A stretch of DNA of 64,000 nt. Origin: Anaerolineae bacterium (GTDB lineage Bacteria > Chloroflexota > Anaerolineae > Aggregatilineales > UBA3940). Below the pieces are notes generated by a model that saw only the letters and a program-made list of their open reading frames with translations, was not told where the DNA came from and did no database searches. The stretch lies in NCBI GenBank assembly GCA_016926255.1, contig JAFGOY010000011.1:62001-126000 (forward strand), read 5' to 3'. This document shows, piece by piece, positions 1 through 43,232 of the stretch. The translations under genes were made by a program, and so were the position numbers. The stretch's first letter is position 1. The number at the start of each line of letters is the position of its first letter.

Positions 1-3000
1 GAAGGAAGTAACTCCGATGAGGGAACCATTAATAATGAAGAAGCCGCTGGTAGCGACGACGAAGAAGATGCCGCAGAGAACGAAGAAGAAACTGCTGATG
101 AGGAAGAAAATGCCGGTGAAGAACTCGGCCCTGACTTGGCCGAACCGGTACCGGTCGAGCCAGACCCGTATGTCACCCATAATGGCAGCAAGCACAGCTT
201 CACTAAAATACAGGATGCGGTTGATTTCGCTGACGATCACGAACCGGACGATGGCGTCATCTATATCGAGGGCGGCACTTTCAATGAAGATGTCATCATC
301 GATAATTTTTCCGACCTGACACTTGAAGGCGGCGTCAATGGCGAAGAGACAATCGTTAATGGCACCTTCACTATTTGTAACTCAATAAACATTCTCCTCA
401 ACAATATCACCTTCCTCGGCGATTTGTTCATTTCGGACTCATCAAATATTTCCATCAAGGGCACCGTCGATGATGACAAGATCACGGCTAACCTGGGCGG
501 AAACGTCGACAACCTGACGATTGATGGTGGAGATGGCAGTGACGATGTGACGATCAATTTGAACGGCACATCAAACAGCGCCAGAGCCCACGACAGCGGG
601 CGTTCGCCACCCGACAACGATACGCTGACAATCAACGCCACTGCTGCCAATGAGACGATCTATGTCGCCAACAATACGGTAACGGTTGGCACCGAGTCGG
701 TGGCTTACAATGGCGTCGAAACAGTTGCGGTCAACGGCATGGCCGGTGACGACCTGCTCGATATCGATTTCGACTCCGGCAACCCTATCCCGGTCGGTGG
801 GCTGGCTTATGATGGCGGGGATGGCTTCGATACTCTTGCCTCGCATGGTGGCAATTTCTTTGAAACGATCTACCGAGCCACTTCCGCCAGCTCCGGCTCG
901 ATCAGCTACGACGACTCGCTCGTCACTTACGCCAACATCGAACCGGCGACCTTTGATGGCCCCGGCGGATCGCTGATACTTGACCTGGACGACGGTGGAG
1001 CAGGTGATACCGATACCGTCGACAATGTGACGGTCAGCGATGACAACACCGAATACGTGACCGTCACCGGCACCGGCTTCGAGAATGTCAGCTTCAAGGA
1101 TTACACCTCGGTCACGATCAATACCAATATCGACGACGATAGCGTAGATATAAACTTCGACCAGGCGTTTGGCATGACCTCGCTGACCATCGAGTTGGGT
1201 GATGGCGACGACACGCTGACGCTGACCAGTGTTGCGGCTGGCGTTGACTATCTGTTTGATGGTGGCGCTGGCAGCGAGTCGCTGACGCTCGACCTGGATG
1301 GCGTGCTCGACGATGACGGCACCCCCGATGTCGATACTGTGACAGTAGGCGACGATGATACTGCGTGGGTGACGGTCACCGGCACCGGCTTTATCGATAC
1401 GTACGTTGCCAATATTGAGACGGTTACCGTCCAGACAGCAGACGAAATCGACGTTGTCGAGGTGGATTTCGATCAGGCGTTCGGCATGACCTCGCTGACC
1501 ATTGAGTTGGGTGATGGTGACGAGACACTGACGCTGACCAGCCTCTCGGCTGGCGTCGATTATCTGTTTGACGGCGGTGCTGGCAGTGAGTCTCTGACGC
1601 TCGACCTGGATGGTGTGTTCGACGATGATGGCACTGCCGACAGCGATGTTGTGACAATCGGCAGCGACGCGACCTGGGTATCGGTCACCGGCACCGGCTT
1701 TGTCGATACTTATATTGCCAATATCGAGACGGTCACCATCGATACAGGGGCCAACGCCGATACGGTTACCCTGAACTTCACCAACCGCCATGGAATGACC
1801 AATCTGGTCATTAATACCGGTACTGGTAACGATACGATTGACATCACCGATACACCGTCCGGGATGACCAGCATTACGGCCAACGCGGGGGCAGGCAGCG
1901 ATAGACTCTTCGGCCCGGCACTGGCTTCTACATTTACGATCAGCAGCCTGACCCTGTCCGGCGGTGGGCTGGGCAGCCCGGTTATCTGGTCGGGGATCGA
2001 AGTTCTCAACGGCGGCGCGGGCGGCGACACCTTCATTATAGATGCCAGCTTTACCGGTACGCTCTACGGCAACGGCGGAGCCGATATTTTCGACTTTGCC
2101 AACGGCGTTACCCTGACCGGCAGTCTGAATGGCGGTGCAGGCGGCGACCGGATCGACGCGGCGGATGTGGCAGCAGCGGCTACCGTCAACTTGAGCAGTG
2201 TGGGAGCCAATGGCTACACCGGCACGGTGGGCTTCATTACCGGCGGGTTCAGCAACATCGGCCAGTTTATCGCCAACGCAGCCCAGGCAGCGACCAACGC
2301 GCTGAACAGTGCGATCAACGCTGTAGCGACCTGGGTAGTTGACGCGACTCCGCAGTTAAATATTGCCGGGGTCCTGCTGGACTTCTCCAACTTCGGTAAC
2401 CTGGGCGGCGGCCCTGGCAGCGACACCTTCGATATCAACGGGGTGACCCTCGCAGGCAGCGTATCGGGCGGCGCGGGCACCAACGTGCTCGATCTGGCCG
2501 GTGCTACAGCGGCGCTCGCCATCGTGCTGACCGGGCTGGGTGCCAACACGGGCTTTGGCGGTACCGTCCCATCGGTGATCGCCGGTGGTTTCGATGACAT
2601 CAACGAGATTGTTGGGCGGGCAGCAGGCGGCGACTCGCTCACCGGGCGTGACGCGGCTGCCGGGTGGGTGCTGAACACCGCCTCGACCTATACCGATAAC
2701 GGACGGACGCTTACCTTCTCTGGATTCGATACCCTCAACGGCGGCGGTGGAGCCGATACATTCACGATTAATGGTGGAACATTTGACGCGGTTGATGGCG
2801 GCGGCGGTAACGATGTCTTTGGTATCAACGCCGGGACGATCACGACCCTTACCGGCGATACCGGGGCTGACACATTCCACTTCCTGGGTGGGACGATCAC
2901 CACCGCTTCGGGCGGTGATAACAACGACACCTTTAACCTGAACGTCGACTCGGCGGTCGCCACCGCGATCAGCGGCGACGCCGGGGATGACGATTTCAAT

Positions 3001-6000
3001 ATTAACGGCGTGAATTACCTTGCCAACCTGAACGGCGGTCTCGGTAACGACGACTTCATTTTCGACGCCGATGGTTCGCTGACTGGCAGCGTGACCGGCA
3101 GCGTGGGCACCAACGTGCTCAACCTCGCCAGCCAGACAGCGGCGCTCGCCGTCGTGCTGACCGGCCTTGGCGCTGGCACAAACACGGGCTTCAACGGCAC
3201 TGTTTCACCTGTTAGCGGTGGCTTCAACGATATCAACGAGATTATCGGGCGGGCGGCGGGCGGCGACACGCTCACCGGGCGCAACGCAACCGCCAACTGG
3301 GTGCTGAACGCTTCCTCGACCTACACCGACACCGCGCATATTGTGACCTTCTCCGGCTTCGATACCCTCAACGGCGGCAGTGGGGCCGATACCTACACGT
3401 TGAACGGTGGGACCTTCACGGCGGTCAACGGCAACGGCGGCAACGATGTCTTTGGCCTCAACGCTGGGACGATCACAGCCATTACCGGCAGCACCGGGGC
3501 CGATACATTCCACTTCCAGGGTGGGACGATCACCACTGCTTCGGGCGGTGCCGATAACGATACCTTCAATCTGAACGTCGACTCGGCGGTCGCCACCGCG
3601 ATCAGCGGCGACGCCGGGGCCGACACTTTCAATATTAATGGCGAATTGGCCGATGTTGCTTTCCTGGCCGACCTCAACGGCGGCGCGGGCAATGACAGTT
3701 TTGTCTTCGATGCCGACGGCGAGCTGACCGGCAGCATCCTTGGCGGCACCGGCATCGACACGCTGAATTATGCCGCATCCTCAAAGGGGCCGATCACCGT
3801 CGACACGATCTCGAACACCGCGTCGCTGGTATCAGGCAGTGTGGATCAGGTCGAGAACGTCACCGGCACCGGTGAGAACGACATCGTGTATTATGATGCC
3901 GACGATGGTGTCAACGGTTACTTCGATCCGAACGGCGGGGATGATACGATGGTGGTCTATGGCACGGCAGCCAGCGATACGTTCTTCGTCAGCGGGGCCG
4001 GGCCGGTCAACGTCAATGCCCTGAGCTATTCCTGGGCCAGCGGTGAGCTTGAAGTTCTCTACATGCTTGGCGACAACGGCAATGACAGTTTTACCATCGA
4101 CCAGGTTCAGTACCAGGTCTGGTATATCTGGGTAGAAGGACAGGGTGACGATGACACATTCAGTGTTACGCCTACCTTTGGGGGAGATCATATCTATCTG
4201 CGCGGCGGCGGCGGCGATGACTATGCGACCATCGACGCGATGGGCGAGGAAATCGACCGCGCCCCGCTGACCAGCCTCAGTCTTTTCTGGTACTCCGATG
4301 TCAACTACAACGACGCCACGTTGGAGCGCATCCGGATATTCGACTTCGACGTCGAGATGGACGAAGACTACGAGGAATCACGGCTGGTCGACGGGCTGGC
4401 CGGGCTGGCCGCCTCCGGTGCCTGGGCTTCCGACCTGATGGGGTATGACCTGTTCGCCTCCACGCTGCCCGCGATGGAATACTCGATGGGTTCGGCGCTG
4501 GGCCTGACGGAAATCATGCAGCTTCTCAGCACCTGGATCGACGATTGGGGCGACTGGGATGATCCCTGGATCGGCGAGGCACACCCAATGGCCAGCGATC
4601 TCGACGACTGGCTCGACGGATTCAACCGGACCGTCAACAGCGCCGACCCGTATTACGTGTTGAACACCTGGGCCGACAATGTCAGCCACGACATGTTGAT
4701 CGGCCATGAGGGTGCGGTTTCAAACTGGTGGTCTGACCTGCGCTATACCTTCGACCTGAAGGCGACGCGTACCCAGAATACCAACCTCGACATGGGAACT
4801 GCCGGTGCCGAGGCAAAGCTGGCCTTTGACGACCAGGCCAATTTCAACTTTACAACCAGCATGCTGGCCGATAACATGATGATCGCCGCCCGGCACAATG
4901 TCAACGGCGCGAACGGGTTCGGCATGGGCTACGATGCGATCCACGCCTGGATCGATCACCGCGAAAACAACTTCGACTTCGGCCTGCTGATCGGGCCGCT
5001 GGAGACGAATGTCGTCAATGGTATCTATGACCTCAATGCCTATGTGCTTGTCCAGCAGGTAACGGCTGGTCTGTCGCAAGGCGACGATTTCTGGCGCTAT
5101 GCCGACCTGAGCGCAGGGGCAACCAAGCCCATCAGTGAACTGGCGACAGTGTCGGTTGACAGCACCTTTACCCCTCCCGCCGGTTTCCCCGTGCCTGCCG
5201 AGTCACCGGCTGTCAACGGGCGCGATTATTTCTACGCATTCTTCCCGATCAACGTACTGCAGGACGGCCTCGACCTGTTTACCTACCAGTACTTTGAAAA
5301 CGTAGCGCCCGGCGCTTACGGTTCAGGCGATTATCTCCACGCTGACGAAGATACCAGTGTTTTCAGCAATCTGCCGCTCCTGCTCGACACCAACCCGTTC
5401 GACCTGATCGATTTTGGCCGCCTGACGATCCAGGATGTGACCCAACTGCTGGCCGAACTCGGTGCCTGGTTCGCCGACCTGAACGACACCGATATGTTGA
5501 GTTACATGGTTCCCTTTGCCCAGGACGTGTCGCTCAACGATGTGTTCAACTATGGATTGGCCTTCCTCGAAGATTTTCTGCGCCCGGTGCTGCTCTCCGA
5601 TGACCCCATCGACCTGAGCGGTAACGAGAACGGCCAGACGGTGAGTTTCGCCATCGAATTGTACAAGACTCACCTTGTTGGCAACCCGCCGGATGAGGAT
5701 TTTCTCCAGAAGATCGACATCTTTACCCTCAACTATAACTGCACCTTCGGTGCCAACATTTCCGACACTGCCGGGCTGCTGTCCGCGTTGAATGCCGCGC
5801 TGGACATCACCGTCACAGAGGCATATGACCCGGACTATACCGAAGACGACACGACATGGAACTGGAACGAGGTGCTGGCCTTCGGTACGATTACGGTCAA
5901 CGGCAACACCTACCTGACGCTAACCACGCTCACCAATTACGAATACGAAGTTATAGAAATCCCGATCTACGATCCCGCCGATCTGACCAATCCTGAGGGC

Positions 6001-9000
6001 TACGAAGAACACCGCGTCAACCAGTGGATTAATTATTTCAGTGTGTCCAATACCAGCAGTGCCGCCCGCACAGTCACCGGGATGGCGGCGCTGTCGTCCA
6101 GCGAGAGCCAGGCTACCGGCTACGAGTCGCTCCAGAGGGTCGCCATTATCCTGTCGTCGCTGCTGCCGATGACGGTCGCCGTCCATTATGACAATACCCA
6201 GCAGAAGATTTACTTCGGCACCGCCACTGATATCCCCGGTGGAGACGACGCGACCGAGGCCCTGAACTGGACGCACCAGATCGAGATCGACACCCTGCTT
6301 GACCTGTCGCTCGACCTGGATGCCTTCTACCAACTGACCGGCAGCACCGACTTGACGCTAACCTCTGACCTGACCTTCAATCTGCTGCCCGGCATCGACC
6401 TGAACCCGACCCCTACCCTGTCGATCGAAGTCGCGCCCGGTGTCGTGCAGTACGACAGCAATGTTTACCCGGTCAACTCGATCTACAACGGCCAGGTAGC
6501 CGAAACCCTCTCCTTCCAGCTTGTCGCGGTTGAAGACGATGCCGGAACGAAGACCAGCCATTCGATCAGCGTGACTGTCACACCAACAACGGTGACGGGA
6601 CACCCGGAATACGCGCTGATCGATCTCTCCGACAACGTCACCAACGCCGACCTGCTGGCCGATGTCCAGGCCGCGCTCAAGCGGGCGCTAGAAAACGCCA
6701 AAGACGCCGACGGTAACTCGCTGGGCTACGACGAAAACGATATCACCGTTGCCTTTGGCTCCAACACAACCGCCGAATACATCGAACTGGTTTTCACCGC
6801 CGCAGGTGACCCGATTGATGGGGTTTCCCTGTATGGTTATTACGAACAGCCCTCACCGCTGCCGCTTGACGGCGTGCTGGGCGATACGCTGGACTTCACG
6901 CTGATCCTTGACGGCACGGCGCATTCGATCAGTGTTGCCAGCGATGGAACGAATGTCAATCTCGAAAACCTGCGGGCCGACATCGAATCCGCACTGGATG
7001 CGGCACTGGGTGTCGACATCGTCGATGTGAATATTCATAATGAAGATGATGTCAAGGGCTATGTGACCTTCACTACCGATCTGGCGAAGCTGCCCAATAC
7101 CACCTACCTGGCAACCGGATCGCTGCTGCGCAAGAAAGTCGAAGTGACCGGGCAAACAGCACTCACCGGACAGATCGCCGATGGCGACTCGCTCGAATTT
7201 TCGGTCAGTGTCTACATTTATAACAGCGACAAGGCCGAACAGGTTTACCAGGCACTCGATATTACGATTGTGGGCGGCGCACTTGGCCCGACGACCGACA
7301 ACACCACCTTTGACGACCTGATAGCCGATATCCAGACTGAAATCAACGCGGCGCTGGCGTTGATCGATGCCGAATCGGAGTACTCGGTTGATGCCAGCGA
7401 CGTGGTCGCACGGGGAACGCTGGTCAATTACGCCTCACTTTCCTTTGAAGCAGCCCCCGGCGCATATACGATGGTGCTGGTTCCCCAGAATGAGAGCGAC
7501 CCGTTTGTCACCGAATTGGGCTATATCCCCTCGGCTACAGCCGGGTACGCCTTCTCCCCGGCGGTTGTCTCTCCGTCATACGGGCACGGTGTCGATACCT
7601 ACCAACTGACCGGCGACACGACTTTTACCCTCGTCGTTGACGGGGTGGATGTCCCCGTGACCGTCACCCAGGCATCGACTTCCACCAACACCGACATTTA
7701 CGATCTGATCCTCGATATCCAGGCGGCGGTCAACACGGCGCTGGTCGGCCAGGGGTTCAATGCCTACGATGTAGTCGTTGAGCTGACCGGCGAGTCGGGC
7801 GGCTACGAGCAGGTAGGCTTTTCCTACGGTGCGACGGCAGGAAATACTGCCCCGGCGCTGCATCTGCGGGACGTGGTCGATACCGACCCGATGTATACCG
7901 ATCTGGGTTACGCTGACCGCGACCAGGTCGCCAAGACATACACTACAGACCTGTTCATTATAACCCCTCCCAGCGAGAGCACCCTGAGCGGCAGCTTCAC
8001 GGCATCGGTGCCGGGCGGCGGCGTGGTCGACCTGGGGACGGCGCGCTACGGCTTCCTCGGTTTCGATATCGGCTTTGATGCCGACAGCGACCTCGACATT
8101 CAGGGCAACAGCGCCCTGACGCTTGATGGTGGAGAAGCCTATCTCACCAACCTGCAACACGAACTGGAACGCGGCGATATTGAGGCAATCACGGCGGCGG
8201 TTGTCGAAGGCTACGGCGAGATCGTCATCAGCCAGATTACCAACGTCGACGAAGGTCTGGTAGCCGACAATACCGTCGAGATCACCTTCCGCGTGCCGGA
8301 AACGGGCCAGATCGACTGGACAGGCGATGCGGTACCGGCTCTCTACGCGTCCGATCCGAACAACCCACCGCTCGGTTCCGGCCCATCGGTGACTGTCACC
8401 GGCAGCGGCAGCGGCCCATCGATCTTCGAGCACTTCACTGGCTTCGACGCTGATACAATCGTGATTGGCCTCGACGCGGTTTCTGACGTCTATTTCAAGG
8501 GGTTGGAGAACGGCGCAGCAGGCACCAGTATCCTGACTTCCGGACTGCCCTTCATCGAGCAAAGTGTGGTCGATCTGCTTGGCCTTCGTGACAACTTCAT
8601 CCCGATTTTGCAGGAGATCGCCAGTAAAGAGAACCTGACGCTTGGTGCGCTCAGTGCCAACATGCGCGGCCTCTTCGGTGATGCCAATGTCGCTTTCTCC
8701 TATGATGGCGGCGGTGCTGGCTCTCTGCCTGCCCTTATGCTCAATCTGGCCTACCGGGTCATTGACGATATCAGCATCCCGCTCGACGTTTACCTCGAAA
8801 AGATGGTCAACCTCTCCCCGACCCCCGGTCTGGAGAATCTGGCGGAGATCGAACGGCTGATCGGCGTCAACAGCGCCGGGGATGTCAACATCCACGTCAA
8901 CGCGCTGCTCGACCTGGTCTTCGGCATCCAGTTCGAGGATGACTACAACGGCGATGGGAGCGCCACCACCGACGACACCGATTACGCGCCCTTCCTTTAT

Positions 9001-12000
9001 ACGGGTGCCGGGGGCAGCAAGCTTACCGCCGACGTCAATATCACCGGTTCCGACCTTGACTTCATGGCCCAGATGGGGGCGATGACGATCACGGTGCAGG
9101 ATGGTTCGGCCACGCTGAACGCCTCCTTCGAAACGACCCTCTCCGACGGCGATGACGAGCGGGTGTACCTGCTCGACCGGGGTGCGGGAACCGTCGAAGA
9201 CCCTTACCGGTATGGCATCGACGGCTCTCCTGACTACGCTGCCTTCTGGGGCGAGATCACCTCTCAGAACGATGCGGTATCGGTCACCGGCACACCAAGC
9301 GCCTACCTGCACATGTTCAACAGCAGCGGCGAAGATATCGGTGAGTTGGAGATCGAGATCAGCAGTCTGGAAAACTACCTGAACAATGCCAGCCCGGCGG
9401 TCTCATTCCCAACCAACACTGTCGATAGAGACGCTCTTTCAGCCGGTATCAGCGTGCTGACGCTGCTGATGAACGGCGACGTGGTAATCGACGGGCTGGA
9501 ACTGCTGCTCGACTATTATCAGCAGGCATTGAACGAGGTAGTCTACTATCCCGATGGCCGCGACCTGATCCCGATCATCGGCAATGCGCTGCTGACCGAG
9601 CAGATCGCACAGTTCGTCGAGAACTTCAAGGACGACCTGCTGGCCTATCTCTCATACCTCTTGCCCGGCGCGGAGGAAACCACCGTCGTCGATATCGTCA
9701 AGGATACGCTGTGGCGCGTGTTTGGCGACAGCAACCTCACCTACAACGACGGTTTGGGTGGAATTTACGGCGACCTCAACATCCTGGGAGACACCGACGG
9801 CGATGGCGGCATCGACACCGACGACGTCCAGGTTTACGGTGACGGCGGACTGGGCGTCTGCCAGGCTGGCGACGATGCCTGCTATTATGAGATGCTGCTC
9901 GAAGGCGCAATGACCGTGCTGATCCCCTTCGACCTGGGTATTCCGTCGCTGAAGATCACCGATTTCACGCAGTCGAGCAGCGATACGGCAGACCCGCTGT
10001 GGGTGGCGCTTGAGTTCTCCTGGGCGCTGCTGTTCAGCTTCGGGGTGAGCATTACCGACGGCTTCTTCGTCAATACCCATACCGACGATATTTCCTCTGC
10101 CAACCATACCGACGATGACGAGATCAATATCGAAGTCCGCGCCTATATTTTCGAAGCGGGAATGACCTGGGCCAACCTCGATCCGGATGATGCCGGGAAG
10201 ACCGGCGTCGACCTGGCCACTCAGCCTGCCGGGGCGAAAATGTGGGTGATTCCCTGCCGCGTTGACTTCTCGCTGGGGCCCAATTACAGCTATACGATTT
10301 TGAGCGAGGGCGAACGGACGAACGTCCCGATCCTCGATTACCCGTATTACGCCGCTACCGGCATCCTCACGACTGAAAACAACGAGAACAACATGCCCGG
10401 CGGCTGGGACGATATGCCCGACGACCCGGACGACGAAGTAAACGCCGACGACGACTCGCCCGGCACCTACCTCTACATCAACTGGTCGGTCGACCTGGTC
10501 GACCCCAGCGGCGAAGGTCAACTGACCTTCACCGAACTGTTGTCAAAGTCAACCGAGGCTGAAGACCTGGTGCATGTGACGATGAGCGATGGCTCAGGCG
10601 TCCGCATCAAGTTCGATATTCAGACAGCGGTCGACTACTTTGTACAGTATCTCGGTCTCGACCCCGACACCCCGCTCATCCCGGCGATGGGTATGTCGAT
10701 GTTCATCACCTGGGACCTCGACCCGAACCATGACGTTTTTGTTCAGGCATACCATGCTTACGTCGATGTTGGTTCGTTTATATCCGACCTGATCGGGCCG
10801 TTCTTCTCCGTTTTCAGCAATGTCCTCCAGGCATTCGACTGGCTGCTCAAGCCCACCGAACCTGACCAGGGTCTGTTATACCTGCCGCTCCCCATTATTT
10901 CGGATTTCATGGGTGAAGATTACAGCCTGATCGACCTGATCCTGGAATTCGACATCGATCCACGCATCACGCTGGCGATTAAAGCGATTGACCTGATCAA
11001 CCGGTTGGCCTGGACGGTACTCGATACCGTGCGCACGGATGAAACCACCGGTACGATGCGCTTCTACTACGGGCATTTTGACCTGTTAGGCGTGACGACT
11101 GCCGCAAAAGGCACCTACGACGCCAGTCAAAAAGTCAATGAGAGCAGCAAGTCGATGCAATCTGCTGATATGGAGGGTTCGCCCGACGGCAAACCCTCGA
11201 CGTCAGAAGTAATCGATATGCTGCTTACGGCGGCGTCTTGGGTCAGTTTCCCGATTCTTCAAGACCCCAATACGCTGATCTACCTGTTGATGGGCGATTA
11301 CGAGAAGATCACGATGCTCTCGGTCAACCTGCCGAAGCTCGAATTTGACTTCATGTTCGGCGGCGAGTTTGCCATCTTCCCGCCGCTGTATGTCGACCTG
11401 CACCTCGGTTTTGGCGCGGCAATCGAAATGGGCTGGGGGTACGATGCCTACGGGCTGGTCAAGATGGTGCAGTCCGGCAACCCGCTTGACCTTATCGACT
11501 GCTTCTTCTTATACGATGTGAATCCTGAAACCGGCGAAGACCGGCCCGAACTGACGCTTTATGGCGAGTTGGTCGCCGGAGCGTCGCTCGACGTGGTCGT
11601 AGCGAAAGCGGGGGTCGAAGGTGGTCTGGTCACCGAGGTTGAATTCAACCTGTACGACCCCGACGGTGACGGTCGGGTGCGCATGTCCGACTTTATTTAC
11701 ATCATAGAGGAGTCGGCCAGCCTCTTCGACGTGTCGTTCACCGGGCGCTGGTACTTCAAAGCATACATTGAAGTCCTGTGGGGCCTGTGGAGTGAAGAGC
11801 TTTACCTGGGCGAAGGCACACTGTTCGAACTGGAACTTGAGCAGTCGCCGGTACCGTTCCTGGCTACCCTGAACGAAGATACCGGCGAGCTGCGGCTCAA
11901 CATCGGCACCAATGCCTCCGACCGCGTTTACTACAACATTGACGATGGTGACGAGCGCTACTACCTGACCCAGTCCGGTGGCACGATTACAATCTGGTAC

Positions 12001-27000: not shown

Positions 27001-30000
27001 GGCGCAGGCAATGATACCTATCGCTTCCGCGATGGCTGGGAAACCGACCGTGTGATCGAGGTGGCGGGTGAAGGCGACGATACGCTCGACTTCAGCCTGG
27101 TAACGCTCGACAATATCACCGCCAATATCGACAGCCTGGAACAGGTGCAGGTAACCTCAGCCCCCAACGGCTACGGTATCCTCAACGCCGGTGCGGGCGT
27201 CTGGGTGCCTAACCTTGAGAACATCATCGGCACGCAGCTTGACGACGACTTTATCTTCACCAATAACGGTGTGCTGCCCGGCTACATCAGCGGGCGCGAG
27301 GGCTACGATACGCTCGATTGGAGCGCTTACACCTCACCACGCCAGATCGTCCTGACCGCACCCGGCGACCCCGACGGCTTCGCCGGTTACGACGACGAGG
27401 GCAGCATCGGTCTGACCTTCGACGGCATTAATAACCTGATCGGTTCCGAATCCATCGAACCCGACTGGCTGACCGGTGCCAACATCGACAACGACTGGCT
27501 GATCAGCAGCGACAACGATGGGTATGTCGAGCATACCGCTGCTTACCATACCGATTTCGTCAGCTTCGAGAACCTGAACGGCGGCAGCGCCGACGACTAC
27601 TTCACCTTTGCCGACGATCAGGAACTGAGCGGCGCGCTCGACGGTAAGGGCGGCAATGACACGCTCGACTTTACCGGCTGGAGCACATCGCTTGGCGTGC
27701 AGATGGGTGCTGGCATCGTCTACCGCCTGCCCGTCCCGCCGCCGCCTACCGCCCCCGATCGTGTTATCGAAGATGGCTTCACCGATATCGAGAACGTGTT
27801 TGGCCCACTGGTCGGCGGCAACGTCATCTACGGCGACGAGTTCGACAACATCCTGGTCGGCAGCCCGTTCGATGACGAAATCTATGGCCTGGGTGGTAAT
27901 GACATCCTTGACGGCGGCTCCGGCGGCAACGACATCCTGCACGGCGGCACGGGCAGCGACACCTTCCGCACCACCGTCGACAGCGATTGGGTGGTCGATC
28001 TGAACGCGGGTACCGCTACTACCGGCACGCGCACGATTATCTTTGACGGCATCGAAAATGCCACTACCGCAGGCGGCAATGACGAAATCTACGGTACGGC
28101 AGGCAGCAATATTATCACCGGCGGCGCAGGCGACGATCTACTCGAAGGCCGTGGTGGTGACGACATCTACATTATCGAAGATGGCTGGGGCAGCGACACG
28201 ATTGTCGAGGCGGCGGGTGGCGGTGATGACCTGATCGACGCTTCGGCAGTGACGACTGCGCTCGACGGGCAGGTCAATACCACCACGCTGGAAATCACCA
28301 GCGGCACCAACCGCATCTGGCACGACGGTACGACCGGCGTCTACATCGAAAGCATTATCAGCGGCAGCGGCGGCGATACCTTTACCTTCGCCAACAACGC
28401 TGTGATTGACGGGTATCTCGACCTGCGCGGTGGGCACGACACGATTGACCTCTCGGCCTACACCACGCCACGCCAGTTCCAGCTTGACGACACCGGCAGC
28501 ATCAACGGCTTCGACGGCGGTGAGTTCAGCATCACGCTCGGCTTCATGAATATCGACGAGATCATCGGCAGTGCGACCTCTTCGCTCGATTATCTGGGCG
28601 GCATCAACGAGATCGCGGCCTGGACGCTCGACGAGTTCAACGTCGACGGCCCGAACACCTACGTTGTCGGCACTTACACGCTGGTCTTCGACAACATCGA
28701 GCAGCACTACGGCGGCAGCGAGGCCGATACCTTCACCCTCAAGCCAGGAACACAGGTCGGCCTGATCGTCTCCGGTGCGGGTGATGACACGGTGATCTTC
28801 GAAGATGGTGCAGCGATCAGCGGCAGGATCGACGGCCAGGGTGGTCACGACACGCTGAACTTTGCAGCCTACAGCACCAGCCAGACCGTCACGCTGACCG
28901 GCATGGGCCTCACCGATGGCTACAACGGCAACAACGCGCTGATCGGTGTGGCGGGCAGCTCCTTCCTCAATATCGACGCGGTAGTCGGCAGCAGCAACGA
29001 CCCGACCAATACGCTGGTCGGTACTGACCGGGTCACCGAGTGGCGGATGACCGAACACGGTTCCGGCCATGACGAAGGCACCGTCACCGACGTGCTGACC
29101 GCCCACAACCTCGACTTTGTCGACTTCGAGTACCTGGTTGGCGGCAGCGATTACGATACATTGACCTTCGAAGAGATCAGCGACCCGGTTCACCTCGAAC
29201 TGACCGGTCACGGGACGAAGGACGGATTCTCCGGCATCGAAACCAGCACGACCCCCGTTCCGGTTATCACCGGCAGCTACACCAACATGAACTACCTGCG
29301 CGGCACCGACGCCGCCGGGTCGGACTCGCTGACCGGTCTGGACGAGAACGCGACCTGGACGGCCAACTGGCCGACCGTCAAGGCCCAGTACAATACCGAC
29401 GCCGCGCCCGGCATCGTGCTTGACTTCACCCACATCGAAGATTATATCGGCGGCAGCGCCTACGATACGCTGACCTTCGCCGCGCTCGCTGCCTCAATAG
29501 AAGTCTACCTGACCGATTTCGGTACGGTCGACGGCTTCGCCGGTGACGAGACGACCGGCGTCCTGGGCACGTTCGACAACATGAAGCGCGTCGAAGGCTC
29601 GGCGACCGGCACCACAGACGAACTGCACGGCCTCGACGCAGCGATCAGCGCGTTGAGCGACTGGTTTATTAACCCCGGCGACGACCAGTACAGCAGCGGC
29701 GGACGCACGCTCGACTTCGTCAACTTCGAGGAACTGTTCGGCGGCGACGGCGAGGACTGGCTCGACTATCACAATTACCCGAACACGACACCGGTCACCG
29801 TCGATCTCAGCAGCAGCCAGGCCGATTTCCTGGGCCAGCTTGCGGTCGGCTTCGTGATCGGCTTCGAGAACATCTTCGGCGGTCAGGGCAATGACACGCT
29901 CACCGGCGACAACAACGCCAACGTGATCGCCGGTTCCGGCGGCGATGATCTGCTCACCGGCCTGGGCGGTGACGATACTTACCTGTTCGGCCCGAACTGG

Positions 30001-33000
30001 GGCAGCGACACGATCGTCGAGACCGCCGCAGGCGGCAATGACACGCTGACCTTCGCCGCGACGCTCGGCTCACATACGGTCGATGTCGGCACGGCGCTGC
30101 TCGTCGAAATTTACAGCGACCATCTCGACGTGACCGCCGGTGCCAACAGCGTCACCGAACTGGGCGACGCGGGCCTGTCGGATGTCGAGAACGTCTACGG
30201 CGGCGATGGCGACGACATCTTCCGCTTCCGCGAAAATGGCGCGGCGCTGGCCGGTATTATCGACGGGCAGGCAGGCAGCGATACGCTCGACTACAGCGGC
30301 TACAGCACGCCGGTCTTTGCCAACCTCGAAACGCTGGCTACCACCGGTGCGAACGGCGGCGCAGCAGGCGGCTTTGCCAGCTTCGAGGCGATGATCGGCG
30401 GCAGCGCCTCCGATACGCTCACCGGCGAGGATAACGACAATACCTGGACGGTGGCGGGCGTGGCCCAGGGCGATGTCGACGGCTTCGCCTTCCAGAGCGT
30501 CGAGAACCTGATCGGCGGCGATGCCTACGATACGCTCGACTTCACAACCAACGCGGTCGACCAGACGATCAACATTACCGGGATGGGCACGGGCGACGGC
30601 TTTGCCGGTGACGTGGCGACCACACTCGACAGCTTCGACAATATGAACGGCCTGGCGGCCAACCCCGCAGTCGACACCACGCTGACCGGGCGCGATGCCA
30701 ATGCGACCTGGGATATCGACGGGACGAACCAGTACCAGAGCGGCGGGCGGGCATTCGATTTCACCGACGTCGACAACCTGACCGGCGGCAGCGGCGACGA
30801 TACCTTCGTCTTTGCCGATACTATCACCGTCTCCGGCGTCATCGACGGCGGCGCGGGCTGGGATACATTCGATTACAGCGATTACTCGACCGCACGGCAT
30901 ATCACGCTGACCGCAGTCGGCGGCATCGATGGCTTCGACGGGGTGGAGAACAACGGCAGCATCGGCGGCGGCTTCCTGAACATGAACGGCTTCACCGGCA
31001 GCCACGCCGTCGCCCCCGATCAACTGACCGGCGCTCCGGTCGACAATACCTGGGTACAGTCCGGCTCGAACCGGGGCACGATCAACGGCAGCTTCGCTTA
31101 CCAGTCGGTCGAACGGCTCGAAGGCGGCGCGGCCCAGGATACGCTCAGTTACGAGGGTTACGGCACCCCGGTGAACGTCAACCTTGCGACCGGTGTCGCC
31201 ACCGATATCTCGGCGGGCTTCGTGGTACCGAGCTTCGAGAATGCACGCGGCGGCAACGCCGACGATACGCTGACCGGCAACGATTTCGACAACATCCTCG
31301 AAGGCGGCCCCGGCGATGATCTGCTGACCGGCGCTGGCGGCGATGATACCTACTACTTCCGCGATGGCTACGGCGGCGCGGCAGGTGATACGGTTGTGGA
31401 ACTGGCTGGTGAAGGCACCGATATGCTCGACTTCAGCGGTGTATCCAACGTCACCGACCTGCTGTTCGACATCCAATCTGATACAGTCACCGTGACCGGC
31501 GGCGCAAGCCCGGTAGTTCATACCGGCGATACACTGCCCACACCGGCCATCTACATCGAGAGCCTGATCGGTGGGCAGGGCAATGACGTATTTGACTTTG
31601 CCAATACCGCTTCCGTCAGCGGCCTGATCGACGGGCAGCTTGGTTCCGATACGCTCGATTACGCCGACTACACCACCGCCCGCCATCTCGTAGTGAGCGG
31701 CCCCGGAACGCTTGACGGCGTCCAGGGCAGCGAGGCAGATACCATCGGCCTGACCTTCGACAATATCGACGTCTACACCGGCAGCAGCACCGTCGGCCAG
31801 CTTGACCAGATCACCGGTGCTGACCTGCCCGCCACCTGGACGGTTGGGCCGGGCATGCACGTCTACACCGACGACGGCACCGGACAGACGCTTATCCTCA
31901 ACGATGTCGAGGTCTACAACGGCGGCGGCGATGTCGATACTTTCAATATTGACGGCGCGCAGACCGTCGACCTGAACGGCGGGGCGGGTGACGATCACTT
32001 CCTGATGTGGAACGCGGGCACGATCAACGGCACCGCGCCGCGCATCGATGGGCAGCTTGGCAGCGATACGCTCAACTACTCCAACTACGGCAGCGCGATC
32101 TCGGCCAACCTTGCGACCGGCTCCGGCACCGGCATCAACGGCGGGGCGGTGGGCGGCTTTGCCAGCATCGAAGTGCTGATCGGCAGCCCGTTCGGCAACC
32201 TGATCGAAGGCAGCCCCGGCCCCGATACGATTTACGGCACCGGAGCCAACGACACGATCTACGGCTACGGCGGTGACGACATCATCTATGGCAGCGGCGG
32301 CAACGATACGATTTACGGCGGCACCGGCACCGATACCATCAATTACAGCAATGCGACGGCAGCCGTCACCGTCAACCTGGGCACGGGACAGGCGACCGGT
32401 GTGAGCATCGACACCGATACGCTCGACAGCATTGAGAATATCGTCGGGTCGCCGTTTGACGATACGTTGACCGGCAGCAGTGCCGCCAACCGCATCGAGG
32501 GCGGTGAAGGCAACGATACGCTGATCGGCAGCGGCGGCAACGATACCTACGTCTTTTCCGGCGACTGGGGCGACGACACCTTCTCGACCACCGTCACCCC
32601 CGACGACGGCACCGACACGCTCAACTTCAGCGGGGTGAGCGCGGCGGTCAACTACGACGTCACGCCGGGCGGCATCGACGTGACGAGCGGCACCAATTCG
32701 CTGACCTACACCGGCACCGATATCGAACTTGTGCGCGGCGGCACGGGCATCGACACCATTAACTTCAACGGTTTCGCGGGCGCTGTGGACGTTCAGCTAA
32801 CCGCGCTTGGCACCAATGACGGCTTCGCCGGGACGGAACTCAACAGCGGGCTGTCCTTCGATAACACCGACGTGCTCAATGTCGGCGGGGCGGTGACCAG
32901 CGATACGCTGCGCGGCATGAATGCAGATGCGACCTGGGACATTTCGGCTGGCACTTACACCAACGATGCCAGCACCCGCGTTCTGACCTTCACCGGCTTC

Positions 33001-36000
33001 GACGACCTGTACGGCGGCAGCGCGGTCGACACCTTCAACGTCGACGCGGCAGCCACCGCCGATATTTTTACCGGTGCGGGCAATGACGTGCTGAACATCG
33101 ACCTGAATGGCAGCCTGACCGGGAGCGTGGCCTTCGGTTTGGGCACCGACACGCTCGATTACAGCGGCTACACCGCAGGCGGCGCGGCGGTCAGCCTCCA
33201 GACGATGACGGCGACCGGCATCAGCGGCGGCTTCACCGGGCTTGAGAACTTCGTCGGATCGGCGGCTGGCGACCAATTAGAGGCAGCCGACGGCAACCAC
33301 ACCTGGACGATCAGCGGCGTGGCCCAGGGCGACCTTGATGGCTTCACCTTCAGCAGCGTCGAAACGCTGGTCGGGCGCGATGGCGACAACGTGCTCGACT
33401 TCGGCGCGCTGGCCGGGCCGCTCGACGTGCTGCTGACCGGGTCGAGCAATCACGGGTTCATAGGCACCGAGACCACCTACGGGGTTGCCTTCCAGCGCAT
33501 CGACGAGATCGTCGGCTCGACTTCAACCACCGACGTGCTGACCGGCACGAACAACCCATCGACCTGGACATTCAATACTACCGAACAGTACACGGCCTAC
33601 ACCCTGGGCGGCGATCACAGCCTCGATTTCTCGGACTTCGAGGTATTGAACGGCGGCAGCGGTGCTGACGAGTTTGTCTTCTTCAACGGTGCGACCTTCA
33701 ACGGCGATATCGACGGGCAGGACGGCGACAACACGCTCGACCTGAGCAACATGACCACCGCCCGCACCGTCACCCTGAGCGGCCCCGGCGTTGGCTTCAA
33801 TGGTTTCGACGGTACCGAGAACGGCCTCGGCGTTGGCTTCGCCCACATCGATACGCTGCTTGGCACCACGCTCAACGATACGCTGGTCGGCGCAGATATC
33901 GCCGCCGAGTGGCAGGTTCAGGACGCCACGACCGTTATTTACACCGACACGGTGAACACGATCACCGCCAGCGATTTCGACATCCTGACCGGCGGCAGTA
34001 CCGCCGATACGCTCAGCTTTGCGGCGCTGGCCGGGCCGATTGAAGTCCAACTGACGGCAGCAGGCAGCATCGCAGGCGATGGGCTGGCCGGGACCGAGAC
34101 TTCGACTGGCTACATTTTCGACAATATGGATAGCTTCGTCGGTTCGGCGGCTGTCGACGACCGGATCGTCGGGCCTAACTGGGCCACCACCTGGACCATC
34201 GGTACGCCATCGACGGTTGCAATCGGCGCGAATGATGCCGAGTTCGATGGGGCCAACCTCGAACTGATTATCGGTGGCAGCGGTGCTGACACCTTCATCG
34301 TCAACGGTGCGACCACCCTCAGCCTGTTCGGTATGGCCGGTGACGATACCTTCACATTCAACGGCGCAGCCTCGGTGACCGACGTATTCGGCGGCACTGG
34401 CACCGACCGGTTCGATTATTCCGGCTACGGCAGCGCGGTGACGGTCGATCTCGGTGCGGCGACGGCTACGGGCCTGACTGGTACGTTTGACGGCATCGAG
34501 GGCATGATCGGCAGCCTGGGCTTTGACGATCAACTGACCGGCCCCAATGCCAATACCACCTGGCGGCAGACCGGGCTGGACAGCGGCCAGCTTACCGGCG
34601 GTGGAATCACCTTCACCTACACCGACGTCGAGACACTGGTCGGAACGGCCAATGTAGATACGCTCGACTTCTCGGCCTTCACCACCGGGCGCAATATCGA
34701 ACTTTTCGGTGCGGGCACCGTCGACGGCTACCAGGGCACCGAGACATCGATCAGCAACCAGTTCGACAATATGAACATTCTGGTTGGCTCACCCGCCGCA
34801 GATACGCTGACCGGCAGCGCCAACCCGACGGCCTTTGCCATCACCGGTACACGCGCCGGTTCGGTCGACGGCCTGCTGAACTTCAGCGCGATTGAGAACC
34901 TGGTCGGCGCAAGCGGTGCCGATGCCCTGTCCTATGCTGCGTACAGCGCACCGCTCACCGTCACATTGACCGGCTTCACCGGCGGCGGTGTGGATGGCGG
35001 CGACAATCTCTCCGGGATGACCTTCGCTGGTATCGATACGCTCACGGGCGGCACCGGCAGCGATACGCTGGTCGGGGTGAACGCAGATGCGACCTGGACG
35101 GTCGGCGCGGGAATCAACGTGACTTACGCAGCCGGTACGGCAGGGCTGAACAGCTTCGAGACGCTCCAGGGTGGCAGCGGCGTCGATACCTTCAATATCG
35201 ACGGCACTCCGGCAGCCAATCTGCGCGGCGGCGCGGGCGACGACACCTTCAACTTCCTGACCAACACCACCCAGATCACGGGCAGCATCGACGGGCAGGA
35301 TGGCATCGATACGCTCGATTACAGCGCCCTGACTGTCCCGGTGACCGTCAACCTGGCTACGCGCAGCGCCGACGGCGTGACCGGCACCGTCGACCGCATC
35401 GAGCGCGTCATCGGTGGGTCGGGAGACGACACAATCACCGGCACGGGCGGCGATGATACAATTGATGGCGGCGCAGGCGACGACACGATCAACGGCGGTG
35501 GAGGCAATGACATCCTCACCGGCGGCGCGGGCGACGACACGATTTATGGTGGCAACGGCACCGACACGATCACCGGCGGACAGGGCAGCGATACCCTTTA
35601 CGGCGGCAATGGTGACGATACCTACCTGTATTCCGGTAACGACTGGGGCGAGGATCATATCCATGAGTACGCGGGTGGCGGCAGCGACACGGTCGATACC
35701 TCGGCGGTGACCAACCCGCTCGCCACCACCTTCGGCGTTGGCCTGATCATCATGCAGGATACAGTCGTCCCGACTAATATCATCTACCTGCATGACGATG
35801 GCCTCGAATTCGTCACCGGCACGCCGGGCGATGACACCTTCACCTTTGCCGATGGAGCGACCACCACGTCAACGATACGCGGACTGGGTGGTCATGACAT
35901 ACTCGACCTGTCGGCCTACACGAGTGCGCTCGACGTGCTGCTTACCGCGCTGGGCACCAACGACGGCTTCGCCGGGATCGAGCGGAACAACGGTATCAAC

Positions 36001-39000
36001 TTCGACGATATCGATGAGTTCATCGCCGGAACCGTCCCCGGCATCGTCGACATGATCACCGGTATGAATGTCGCCAGCACCTGGACTATCGATGATGGCG
36101 GCTACGATTACTCGGCGGACGGGTTCGCCAACACGCTCGACTTCGCCAACTTTGAAGAGGCATACGGCGGCTCCGGTGACGACACCTTCAACGTCCGCAA
36201 TACCCCCACGCTCGACCTGTTCGGCGGCGCGGGTGACGACACCTTCGACTTTGACGCAGCGGCAGACCTGACCGGCAGCATCGACGGCGGCGCGGATGTC
36301 GATACGCTCGATTACGCCGGGTTCACGGCAAGCGGTGTGACGGTCGATCTCTCGACCGGCTCCGCCACGAACGTCAACGGCGGCGCTGTGGGCAGCGTCA
36401 CCGGCGTCGAGGACGTAACCGGCAGCGCACAGGATGACACGATCACCGGTGATGGGAATGCCAACCGCCTCGAAGGTCTGGCAGGCGAAGACACGATCTT
36501 CGGCCTGGGCGGTGACGACACACTCGTCGGCGGCGCAGACGACGATCACCTGTTCGGCGGCACCGGTAACGATACTTACGAGTACGCCGATAACTGGGGC
36601 CAGGACGATGTCAACGAGGCAGCGGGTGAAGGCAGCGACACGCTGGACCTCACCGGCGCACTGATCGGGCTGACCATCGACCTGTACACTGCCAGCTTGC
36701 AGATTATCCAGGGCCTGAACACGATTGATTACATTGGCAATGCCCTGGAGAACATTACCGGCGGCAGTGGTAACGATGTCGTCAACTTCAACGACGACGG
36801 CTGCGGCATCATCGGCCTGCTCGACGGGCACAGCGGCAGCGACACGCTCAATTACGCCGCCGGGTACACGTCACCGGTCACCGGCAACCTGGAAACGGCA
36901 GCGGCCACCGGCACGGGCGGCATCGCCAACTTCGAGAGCATGGTCGGCGGCAGCGGCTCTGATACGCTCATCGGCCAGGATATTGCAAACAACTGGGCCG
37001 TCACCGCCAACGACGCGGGCACCCTGAACGGCACCTTCGCCTTTGCCTCGGTCGAGAACCTGATTGGCGGCGCGGTGGATGATCACTTTGCCTTCTCCGA
37101 TGGCGTCAGAGTTTCCGGCCTGGTCGATGGACTGGACGGCACCGACACGCTCGACTATGCTCTGTTCACCTTCGCCAATCCGGTAAATATCAAGCTGGAC
37201 GGCGTGGGCACGGTCGATGGTTACCAGGGTGAAACGACCGTCTCCGGCGTGATCTACACCCTCTTTGACAACATCGATGCCGTGATCGGCGGCGCGGGCA
37301 GCGACTCGCTCGAAGGCCCGCCCATGGACAACGTCTGGCATCTGACCGGCCCGAATACAGGGACGCTAAATGGCGATTTCTCCTTTACCTCGATTGAGAA
37401 CCTGACCGGTAATGCCCTGTCTGATACCTTCATCGTCGACCCCGGTGCGTCGGTTGACGGCGCGATTAACGGTATCGGCGGCGGTGACACCATCGACTTC
37501 AGCGGCTACAACGTGCCGATTTATGTCGATCTTGGTACGGGCCTGGTGCTGATCAATGGCAATCCGGGCGCAATCCCCGGCGGCCTCTCGAACTTTGCGA
37601 ATGTCATCGGCGGCAGCGCCAACGATACGCTGATTGGCAACAGCAGCGATAACTCTCTGTACGGCGGTGCGGGCGACGATATCCTGAGCGGTCTGGGCGG
37701 TAATGATATCCTCGACGGCGGTGAAGGCAACGATACCATCGACGAACACACCGCAACCAACCCGGTGAACATCAACCTGACGACCGGCACCGCGTCCGGC
37801 ATCGACATTGGCAACGACACGCTCTCCAACCTGGAGAACATCATCGGCGGCAGTGGCAACGATACGCTGATCGGCGATGACGGCGACAACTGGATCACCG
37901 GCAACGAGGGTAGCGATCTGATCGACGGACGCGGCGGGAACGACACCTTCGACGAACACAACACTACCCAGGGTATGAACGTCAATCTGCCGGGCGGCAC
38001 GGCGACCACGACCAGCGGCGCGGCTTACACTGACACGCTGCTGAGCATCGAGAATGCTTTCACCGGTTCTGGCAATGATACGCTGATCGGCGATGATGGC
38101 GACAACATCCTGGGCAGCGGCAACGGCAACGACAGCGTCGACGGCGGCGCAGGCAGCGATACCTACGATCAGCGCTTCGTGACGCTCGATATGTTCGTCG
38201 ACCTGATGTTCGGTGCCAACCAGTCGCAGTTTGGGGCGTACGTCGATCAGCTTTCGAATATTGAGAACGTTACGACCGGCTCCGGCAATGACCAGGTTTA
38301 CGGTGACGATGGTCCGAACGGACTCAACGGCGGACCCGGTAACGACAGTCTCTATGGGCGTGGCGGCGACGACACCTACTATTTCTGGAACGACTTTGGC
38401 ACCGATTGGGTATACGAGACTACCGGATCGGATACGATGAACTTCACCGGTGTCACTTCCAACCTGACTGTTATCCTGAACAACAATGTCCAGGGTGGCT
38501 ATGGTGCCAACACTGCCACTCATCCAGACGACCTGATCGAGGTTGTGATCGGCGGTCAGGGTGACGATACCTTCCAGTTTGGCAGTGACGGGGCCACGTT
38601 TGCCGGAGGTATCGGCCTGCTCAACGGATATGAGGGCAGCGACACCATCGACTATTCGATATACACCACTTCGATAAACGTGAACCTTGAGACCGGCAGT
38701 GCAACCGGACTCGGCGGTATCATCAGTATCGAGAACGCCATTGGCGGCAGTGGCGCTGATACCTTTACCTCCAATGCATTGCTCAATACATTGGACGGCG
38801 GCCCTGGCTATGACCGTGCCTACTGCGTTGACTGCGGTATCGACAATCTGATCAATATCGAGTGGTGGCAGTGCCTGGGCGTTGGCGGTGGCGGTGGTAA
38901 AGTTTCCGGTGTCGAAACGATTGCACTGGTCGACGCACCTGCTCTGCCCTGGATTGTCATCGGCGGCGAGGTCTTTATTCCGCTCAGCCCACTCAGCCCG

Positions 39001-39936: not shown

Positions 39937-39964
39937 ATGCCGACAATCACATTATGAAAATCGA

Positions 39965-39988
39965 CGAGGCGCAACAGCGCCTCGTTTT
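39965..39988 (+). terminator. Intrinsic terminator of the giant gene
   Basis: A perfect 8-bp stem, CGAGGCGC / GCGCCTCG, with an AACA loop is followed by TTTT, 29 bases after the giant gene's stop. Four A residues precede it on the other side (39957-39960), so it may also stop transcription from the convergent recombinase gene. Confidence 0.9.
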
Positions 39989-40078: not shown

Positions 40079-41155
40079 TTAAAAGCCTTTGACCCCCTTG
40101 TTGGCAACCTTCGAATCTTCGACATAGCGGCGCGGCATGGTCAGGCTGTTCCATCCGCCCGCTTCCTGCAAGGCGAAGGGGTCGGTGCCGCTTCGGGCGG
40201 CGTGGGTGGCCCAGTAGTGTCGACAGTCGTGGGCGCTCAACCCCGCGATGCCGATCTGCTTTCCCAGGTAGCGCACCCGCTTGGTGATCGCCCGCTCGGT
40301 CATCCCGGCACTGGTCAGTTCCCCGCCTTTTCGACTGCTGCGCAGCAGCGGGCCTTTGTCGGGCGCATCTCCGCCCATCATATAGGCATAGGCGGTCCGG
40401 AGCGTGTTGGCGGTCAGGGTGTGAACCTGCTCCTTGTCAACCTTTGGACGGTAAAAGCGCAGTTCACCGGTTTTTAGATCGATGTTCTCTACCTTGATCA
40501 GCGCGACCTCACCGCAGCGGAGACCGTGTTCGAGCAGCAGGCACATCAGCAGCGCGTCACGCCGTCCCTGGGGCGTATCGGGCTGTTCGCGTAACTGCAC
40601 AGCTTGTTCGTGTGACAGGCGGGTCGGCTCTGACTTCTTATCACCAACACGGGTGACCCGCCGTTTCTGGTCGACGCGCTTGCTTTCTTTGTGGCTGAAC
40701 CCGGTGACCGTTCTGATCATGGCGTGTTCGGAGCCATCAATTGCCCCGGCCTTGAACGCCAGCCCTGCATATGTCTTGACGGTCGACAGGCGAACATTGA
40801 CGCTGCCGACCGCGTAGCCGCCGGAGAGCATCCAGCGCTTGAAGCCCTCGACGATGCCCCAGGTCATCCCGTTCCAGGCATCGGGATCGGTTTGCAGTGC
40901 ATCTGAATTGATCGGCACCCCGGCGTCGTTGAGAAAATCGGCAAACAGGCGGAGATCGGCTTTCTGGCGGCGGAGCGTGTTTTCGGCGCGACGGCTGACG
41001 TAGTCGGCGAAAACGCCCTGCGCGGCGGCGAAGTTGGCCGCACGCCCGGCCTGGTGCAGCGCGAAGTTCTCGTATGGGGTCGCCGTGGCGAGCGACTTTT
41101 CCTCTTCGACGATTTCTCCGTGTATGATCATGTCATCGGATGGTGAAGTGGTCAT
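40079..41155 (-). CDS. Tyrosine recombinase (XerC/D-like integrase)
   Basis: The 358-residue protein has an N-terminal SAM-like core-binding domain (about 45-140) and a C-terminal catalytic domain with the complete active site: Arg213 (GLRCGE), Lys238, His309 and Arg312 (HDCRH), Trp335 in the second His/Trp position, and the nucleophile Tyr344 (RRYVED). It should therefore be catalytically competent for site-specific strand exchange. A TTGACA-17-TAATAT promoter lies 63-91 bases upstream. No Shine-Dalgarno is evident before the ATG. It converges on the giant gene and diverges from nurA. No attachment-site duplication, tRNA or excisionase was found, so this may be a resident recombinase rather than a prophage integrase; its target is unknown. 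Confidence 0.92.
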   Translation of the reverse strand: MTTSPSDDMIIHGEIVEEEKSLATATPYENFALHQAGRAANFAAAQGVFADYVSRRAENTLRRQKADLRLFADFLNDAGVPINSDALQTDPDAWNGMTWGIVEGFKRWMLSGGYAVGSVNVRLSTVKTYAGLAFKAGAIDGSEHAMIRTVTGFSHKESKRVDQKRRVTRVGDKKSEPTRLSHEQAVQLREQPDTPQGRRDALLMCLLLEHGLRCGEVALIKVENIDLKTGELRFYRPKVDKEQVHTLTANTLRTAYAYMMGGDAPDKGPLLRSSRKGGELTSAGMTERAITKRVRYLGKQIGIAGLSAHDCRHYWATHAARSGTDPFALQEAGGWNSLTMPRRYVEDSKVANKGVKGF

Positions 41156-42593: not shown

Positions 42594-42612
42594 GGTGTGA
42601 AAGGGAACACAT

Positions 42613-43221: not shown

Positions 43222-43232
43222 AGGAAGATGAT

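What the first reader, a model, noticed from the sequence alone, without database searches (positions are those of the whole stretch)
1..39936. Single open frame of at least 13,311 residues
The frame is unbroken over 39.9 kb and has clear domain zones, an intrinsic terminator and a real C-terminal domain. This is at the extreme end of bacterial protein length, and the start is still outside the window. The uninterrupted frame and repeat-level conservation argue against decay. An RTX-like composition points to an extracellular calcium-stiffened structure. How such a chain is secreted in this organism is unclear, because no secretion genes are linked.
Basis: partly seen in the sequence, partly recalled or inferred. 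Interest (0 to 1): 0.8.

Follow-up and report, generated by a model that had tools for sequence, protein, structure and literature searches.

The report
Giant calcium-repeat surface protein gene
A bacterium of the Anaerolineae carries one intact gene for a 13,496-residue protein built mostly of calcium-binding repeats; the protein is probably exported by the ordinary Sec route, and a distant relative has a giant of similar build, so it is a real gene of a known broad kind with an uncatalogued end domain.

Summary
The frame is open over window 1-39936 and continues upstream; the likely ATG lies 554 bases before the window, giving 13,496 residues (1.40 MDa). The chain starts with a Sec-type signal sequence and an acidic Ser-rich linker; residues 4245-13120 are RTX nonapeptides and diverged modules; the last ~330 residues are a separate domain. 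Coding signal is uniform, the 25 longest internal repeat pairs have dN/dS 0.19-0.80, and the longest exact repeat is 49 bp, so decay or repeat collapse is unlikely. Another Anaerolineae family has a homologue of at least 11,412 residues with the same tail.

The secretion puzzle largely dissolves: this genome has no TolC or Omp85 match, and a Sec signal is present. 'Extreme length' is overstated: 39,678 residues are in print for Omnitrophota. The tail domain matches neither Pfam nor NCBIfam; in the loci held it lies at or near (within 35 residues of) the end of 32 of 32 matching Anaerolineae proteins, 16 with an LPxTG-like motif before it, which the giant lacks. The function (calcium-stiffened extracellular fibre or coat) is inferred. 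Known broad kind, variant export route, uncatalogued tail.

The parts
1..39936 (+). giant gene, codons 186 to 13,496 plus stop; the start ATG lies 554 bases upstream of the window (C23:61446)
1..1722 (+). end of the Ser/Asp/Glu-rich linker, then a weak beta-helix-like entry (PF01095, aa 243-329, below cut-off) and an acidic repeat pair (aa ~570-767, 83% over 283 bp)
1723..3855 (+). first block of RTX-like modules (aa ~760-1470), includes the longest close repeat pair (77% over 654 bp)
4063..11985 (+). non-repetitive region (aa ~1540-4180) without a Pfam family above cut-off; no relative found in 40 related genomes
12178..38805 (+). RTX core (aa 4245-13120): PF00353 nonapeptides and ~56/93/130-aa modules in diverged copies
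38953..39933 (+). C-terminal domain with insertions (aa 13,170-13,496), shared with other Anaerolineae proteins, at or near their end
39964..39985 (+). hairpin behind the stop, possible weak intrinsic terminator (listed by the scan on the minus strand only)
40079..41155 (-). tyrosine recombinase (phage integrase family), convergent neighbour; possible but untested link to acquisition of the giant gene

Best explanation
A single intact gene encodes a 13,496-residue, 1.40-MDa acidic extracellular protein of an Anaerolineae bacterium. It is most likely exported by the Sec translocon from a cell without an outer membrane (signal sequence: seen in the sequence; export: inferred). In calcium-containing surroundings the ~8,900-residue RTX core folds module by module into beta-rolls (inferred from the family), which would prevent back-sliding and give a long stiff fibre or sheath. 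The Ser/Asp/Glu linker would span the wall layer, and the tail domain would cap the chain or bind the surface (inferred). Likely role: attachment, aggregation or filament coat (inferred). The gene has one further giant relative (G608) and a third relative of unknown full length (G539), both in another Anaerolineae family. It was probably acquired by this lineage: within its order the tail was found in no other genome sampled, and only weak module matches were seen in 3 of 153 others.
For: Start, signal sequence (...KLFVLLLIIICLSLALPTGRVFA-GDGG...), linker: (aa 14-38 is the most hydrophobic stretch of the chain). Promoter-like TTGACA-17-TATGAT, 11 of 12 (1 found, 0.4 expected in shuffles). RTX core: (26 of the genome's 29 PF00353 matches lie in this gene); a profile of the modules finds an adenylate-cyclase toxin RTX chain in the PDB at 8.6e-5. 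Integrity: no stop, even codon bias (correlation with six neighbouring genes 0.91-0.94 in each of 7 blocks), dN/dS 0.19-0.80 in the 25 longest internal repeat pairs, 25 of 25 below 1, longest exact repeat 49 bp. Relatives: G608:C10, at least 11,412 aa, 32% identity over an alignment of 8,292 columns, same tail; G539:C183, 653-aa end piece with the same modules and tail. Tail in 0 of 40 relatives and, in no other genome of the order among the 13 of 396 that matched. No TolC and no Omp85 in a 96%-complete genome; each control search rang in 7 of 14 named genomes. Two of three small proteins of the same order that match the module profile weakly (G046, G094) also begin with signal-like sequences; the third is cut by a contig end.
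Against: No transcript, peptide or calcium data. The signal sequence was judged by eye and hydropathy, not by a trained predictor; six other places reach 1.6-2.05 in 19-residue hydropathy windows. TolC and Omp85 absence rests on one incomplete genome (not tested in G608 or G539); other T1SS parts were not searched genome-wide. The repeat model has mean pLDDT 56 and no PDB match at E<=0.001 (best 6sus, 0.043); the tail model is useless (pLDDT 35). No recognised anchor: no [LI]PxTG anywhere in the giant, so surface retention is unproven. The N-terminal region of G608 is not detectably similar to our non-repetitive region (BLAST, E up to 0.1), and the long alignment of the two giants runs through repeats, so its register is not certain. 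The repeat pairs used for dN/dS overlap in part and are not independent. Acquisition is inferred from patchy distribution; no flanking repeats longer than 14 bases were found in the stretches compared.
Confidence: 0.62

Rival explanations
1. Type I secreted giant RTX adhesin, as in Gram-negative bacteria, with unlinked transporter genes.
For: RTX repeats are typical of T1SS substrates (recalled); searches find PF00353.
Against: No TolC-type match and no Omp85 match in the genome; an N-terminal Sec-type signal; the tail is a domain also found at the end of proteins of other make-up. ABC and membrane-fusion parts were not searched genome-wide.
Confidence: 0.06
2. Sec-exported giant whose main job is not structural: the non-repetitive region aa 1540-4180 carries an undescribed enzymatic or antibacterial activity and the RTX core is a display stalk.
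For: The non-repetitive 2,600 residues differ from the repeats and from the N-terminal region of G608, as an interchangeable payload would.
Against: No enzyme family above cut-off; the region is near the N terminus, inside the chain, not at the tip.
Confidence: 0.2
3. Degenerate or mis-assembled open frame without a product.
For: An assembly in 82 contigs, read type unknown, and a repetitive gene; no expression data.
Against: Uniform coding signal, dN/dS below 1 in 25 of the 25 longest repeat pairs, longest exact repeat 49 bp, homologous giant in another family.
Confidence: 0.05

Closest known systems
RTX proteins (Pfam PF00353, HemolysinCabind)
   Same: Nonapeptide GGxGxDxUx arrays, acidic, glycine-rich, core nearly free of lysine and cysteine
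   Different: Sec-type signal instead of type I export (recalled as the usual route); a genome without TolC or Omp85 matches; diverged 56-130-residue modules between the nonapeptide blocks; a separate C-terminal domain
Marinomonas ice-binding giant adhesin MpAFP (PMC4083281, start of abstract seen)
   Same: Megadalton size, calcium-related repeats, presumed reach or adhesion
   Different: That protein has about 120 identical 104-residue Ig-like repeats; here the repeats are diverged RTX-type modules (longest exact DNA repeat 49 bp)
Omnitrophota giant ORFs (PMC10066038, passages read)
   Same: Giant single ORFs proposed to form a coat or adhesin
   Different: 39,678 aa with 42 predicted transmembrane helices there; 13,496 aa with one dominant hydrophobic segment (the signal) here
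Giant genes (>5 kb) of Anaerolineae (PMC10608941, passages read)
   Same: Same class, same presumed surface role
   Different: The passages read count such genes; they describe no family, tail domain or export route

Membership tests
RTX protein (PF00353) | Several nonapeptide repeats above Pfam's cut-off | tested here: met
   26 matches in the gene; 51, 87 and 153 bits in the three pieces against a cut-off of 23
RTX protein (PF00353) | Calcium-dependent beta-roll fold | tested here: inconclusive
   AlphaFold2 model pLDDT 56; best PDB match an RTX block, 6sus, but at E 0.043; calcium binding needs the bench
Type I secretion substrate | TolC-type outer-membrane channel in the genome | tested here: not met
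   PF02321: 0 of 1 genome; control rang in 7 of 14 named genomes
Type I secretion substrate | Linked ABC exporter and membrane-fusion protein | tested here: inconclusive
   None among the flanking frames scanned with Pfam (8, 10, 10, one of them twice); not every neighbouring ORF was scanned, and unlinked exporters were not searched
Sec substrate | N-terminal signal: basic start, hydrophobic core, small-residue cut site | tested here: met
   aa 1-42 by inspection and hydropathy; no trained predictor on hand
LPXTG (sortase-anchored) surface protein | LPXTG motif, hydrophobic segment and basic tail at the C terminus | tested here: not met
   No [LI]PxTG in 13,496 aa; the chain ends in a soluble-looking domain, although the genome has 4 sortase matches
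Giant genes of bacteria (>5 kb, surface type) | Single very long ORF with repeats and a surface role | tested here: met
   40.5 kb, repeats; the surface role itself is inferred
Serralysin (PF08548 / NF035945 matches) | M10 protease domain with zinc site | tested here: inconclusive
   NCBIfam best stretches cover only positions 324-367 and 278-367 of 462 and score 27 and 200.6 against a cut-off of 500, i.e. the RTX part; no protease-domain match at E<=0.01; a zinc motif was not looked for

The most novel reading that the evidence does not exclude
The tail domain is a new kind of surface-sorting or capping signal of Anaerolineae: a ~140-residue domain at or near the very C terminus of proteins from 187 to over 13,000 residues, introduced in half of them by an LPxTG-like motif (such as [IVL]PxTGG) where sortase substrates would carry a membrane segment. 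It would hold secreted proteins, giants included, at the cell surface, with or without sortase cutting.
Probability: 0.2. Interest if true: 0.65.

Novelty: new variant of a known kind. Interest (0 to 1): 0.45.

Why it matters
RTX giants are known mainly as type I secretion substrates of double-membrane bacteria (recalled). Here one sits in a genome with no TolC or Omp85 match, apparently as a Sec substrate, and so offers a system for asking how a 13,500-residue chain passes the Sec translocon and whether folding with external calcium pulls it. The tail domain, absent from Pfam and NCBIfam, links small and giant Anaerolineae proteins and can be tested directly. Anaerolineae are described as growing in aggregates and biofilms (PMC10608941, passage), so the family may bear on aggregation.

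Tried and rejected
Decay: rejected. Repeat-driven misassembly: unlikely, longest exact repeat 49 bp. T1SS substrate: disfavoured. LPXTG anchoring of the giant: rejected. Sortase gene beside the tail-domain proteins: none seen with a home-made sortase profile in the stretches held (20 kb at seven places, 12 kb for G539, 43 kb for G608, about 3 kb at most others). That profile was built from three of G000's four sortases and found the fourth at 1e-8, but it is no general model; on C23 it found only the known sortase, about 55 kb downstream of the giant. Its first version used wrong frames for two of four sortases and is discarded. One search read minus-strand loci on the wrong strand; its counts are replaced. 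Integration at tRNA-Leu (C23:58974-59058) with the integrase at the other end: only 12- to 14-base matches were shared between the stretches compared, and the tRNA faces the wrong way (the expected orientation is recalled). The integrase has only weak phage relatives (4 of 50,697 records, at most 26.5% identity). Conserved TPR neighbour: TPR genes lie beside the gene in G000 and G539 (27% identity), but at opposite ends; on the 3' side of G608 none was recognised by eye among frames over 250 aa, and its 5' side is beyond the contig end. Kept only as a remark. The vRNAP_dom_2 and Pectinesterase matches are below cut-off. Reading antisense ORFs of up to 642 aa as genes: rejected, they look like shadows of the codon bias (one antisense frame has only 72 stops).

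Searches without result: non-repetitive region in the named genome collection by exact peptide patterns (finds only close relatives) and in 40 relatives; tail alone in 40 relatives; 16S rRNA not found in the assembly. Papers (listings only): none held Anaerolineae, RTX and calcium-binding together or Anaerolineae, adhesin and RTX; the letters IPVTG gave one paper, on a Salmonella needle complex; RTX, monoderm and Chloroflexi gave four plant or soil papers. That the tail domain is undescribed rests on Pfam, NCBIfam and these searches only.

Full report
WHERE IT LIES. The window is C23:62001-126000 of a 4.61-Mb, 82-contig genome, 96% complete, 2.7% contaminated. Of eight PorA relatives in the named collection, seven are labelled Anaerolineae or Anaerolineales and one Chloroflexi; the best is 66% identical. 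No 16S rRNA was found in the assembly, so the class rests on this.

THE GENE. The frame is open from C23:61389 to the stop at window 39934-39936. Start candidates lie close together (among them TTG 61407, ATG 61410, ATG 61446); from the last the protein has 13,496 residues, 1.40 MDa and a net charge near -1813. It has 62 Lys, 221 Arg and 14 Cys. A promoter-like site TTGACA-17-TATGAT ends 103 bases before the ATG at 61446, and that ATG lies 228 bases behind the stop of a TPR-protein gene on the same strand. Behind the giant's stop a 9-pair hairpin could act as a weak terminator.

INTEGRITY. For this composition the chance of no stop is about 10^-185. GC by codon position keeps the same order (third highest, second lowest) in all 14 blocks of 3 kb, and synonymous codon use correlates 0.91-0.94 with six neighbouring genes in each of 7 blocks. 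The 25 longest internal DNA repeat pairs have dN/dS 0.19-0.80, 25 of 25 below 1 (the pairs overlap in part). The longest exact repeat is 49 bp, shorter than ordinary reads, so collapse of repeats is unlikely. Together with the homologues below, decay and artefact are poor explanations.

ANATOMY. aa 1-42: basic start, most hydrophobic stretch of the chain, VFA-G cut site (my reading). aa ~43-232: Ser/Asp/Glu/Gly linker. aa ~243-329: weak beta-helix resemblance (PF01095, below cut-off). aa ~570-1470: acidic repeats and RTX-like modules. aa ~1540-4180: non-repetitive, no family above cut-off. aa 4245-13120: RTX core with 80 strict nonapeptides (200 shuffles: mean 2.1, maximum 8). A 56-residue profile matches 90 times over the whole chain, many copies partial. 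aa ~13170-13496: tail domain with insertions.

RELATIVES. The module profile (A1) finds, besides G000, 3 of 153 other genomes of the order at E<=1e-6, all weak and in ORFs of 608-890 aa, and 1 of 399 other sampled phylum genomes at E<=1e-10 (G539). The repeat-plus-tail profile (A2) finds 15 of 152 genomes of G539's family at E<=1e-8, G539 included, some by the repeat part and some by the tail. Among them is G608, whose frame of 11,412 residues runs off its contig end; it aligns with ours at 32% over 8,292 columns, with further matches in other registers, and ends with the same domain. G539 has the last 653 residues of a relative of unknown full length before its contig ends (tail-to-tail BLAST 4e-18). 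The first looks are loose and capped, so these counts are lower bounds. With the tail profile (A3) 13 of 396 class genomes match at E<=1e-5: G000, ten of G539's family and two of a third family; the tail alone was found in 0 of 40 other relatives. This suggests acquisition by transfer. The integrase at 40079-41155 is a hint only; only 12- to 14-base matches were shared by the flanks compared.

TAIL DOMAIN. Ten rows from eight further genomes and our own were aligned. None matches a Pfam or NCBIfam family at E<=0.01 (one Pfam match at 0.058), and nothing convincing in the PDB (best 0.27). In all loci held, 32 distinct proteins match (33 rows; L052, a cut copy of the G539 protein, was dropped): 28 of 32 end within 5 residues of the domain end and the other four within 7 to 35. 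Nine of the 32 were used to build the profile. Sixteen of 32 have [LIVFMW]Px[TSA]G at the domain start, 11 of 32 the stricter [IVL]PxTGG; the looser motif occurs in 8 of 781 control windows of the same proteins. G000, G608 and G539 lack it by this pattern, though G539 has a near form (IVPTGG). No sortase was recognised beside these genes in the stretches held, so a sortase link is speculation. In G000 only the giant carries the tail, which speaks against a sorting machine shared by many substrates in this genome.

EXPORT. RTX proteins are classically type I substrates (recalled). This genome has no TolC-type and no Omp85 match, while the same searches each rang in 7 of 14 control genomes; it has four sortase matches and a LytR-CpsA-Psr protein near by. 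With the N-terminal signal, Sec export from a cell without an outer membrane is the best reading. Two of three small proteins that match the module profile (G046, G094) also start with signal-like sequences; the third is cut. Calcium-driven folding outside the cell as a brake against back-sliding is inference from the RTX family.

STRUCTURE. A two-module segment modelled with five window rows is all beta, pLDDT 56; its best PDB match is an RTX block (6sus) at E 0.043, not significant. By sequence the module profile finds an adenylate-cyclase toxin RTX chain at 8.6e-5. The tail folded alone gave pLDDT 35 and is not used.

IN PRINT. Giant genes above 5 kb are comparably more prevalent in Anaerolineae (PMC10608941, passages); Omnitrophota reach 39,678 aa (PMC10066038, passages); UniProt holds over 41,000 proteins of 5,000 aa or more (PMC11573180, start of abstract and passages). 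The finding is therefore a new, well-supported case of a known broad kind, with a variant export route and a tail that the family libraries do not hold.

Noticed in passing
L080, L116, L117, L118, L119, L123 and others; window 38953-39933: A C-terminal domain without a Pfam or NCBIfam match lies within 35 residues of the end of 32 of 32 matching Anaerolineae proteins; 16 of 32 carry an LPxTG-like motif at its start against 8 of 781 control windows.
   Followed up: partly
L007:18989 to L008:1217 (C23:59-61.2 kb); L058:8381-10201: A TPR-repeat protein gene with a hydrophobic N-terminal segment lies beside the giant gene in G000 and in G539, at opposite ends.
   Followed up: partly
L060 and L061 (G046:C37, G094:C86): Small proteins that match the module profile (frames of 793 and 608 aa), same order, start with Sec-type signal sequences.
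   Followed up: no
G000:C21:2165-2461 (L131): The only other RTX matches found in the genome are 3 in a 231-aa frame on another contig.
   Followed up: no
window 571-39228, minus strand: 25 antisense ORFs of 153-642 aa look like shadows of the codon bias: one antisense frame has only 72 stops in 13,496 codons.
   Followed up: yes
window 41370-44891: A NurA-domain gene and a HerA-like helicase gene, a DNA-end processing pair (recalled), lie behind the integrase.
   Followed up: no
L008:1598-2130: The Ser/Asp/Glu linker lies in a low-GC3 stretch (GC3 0.62 in the first 3 kb of the gene against 0.69-0.84 later).
   Followed up: no
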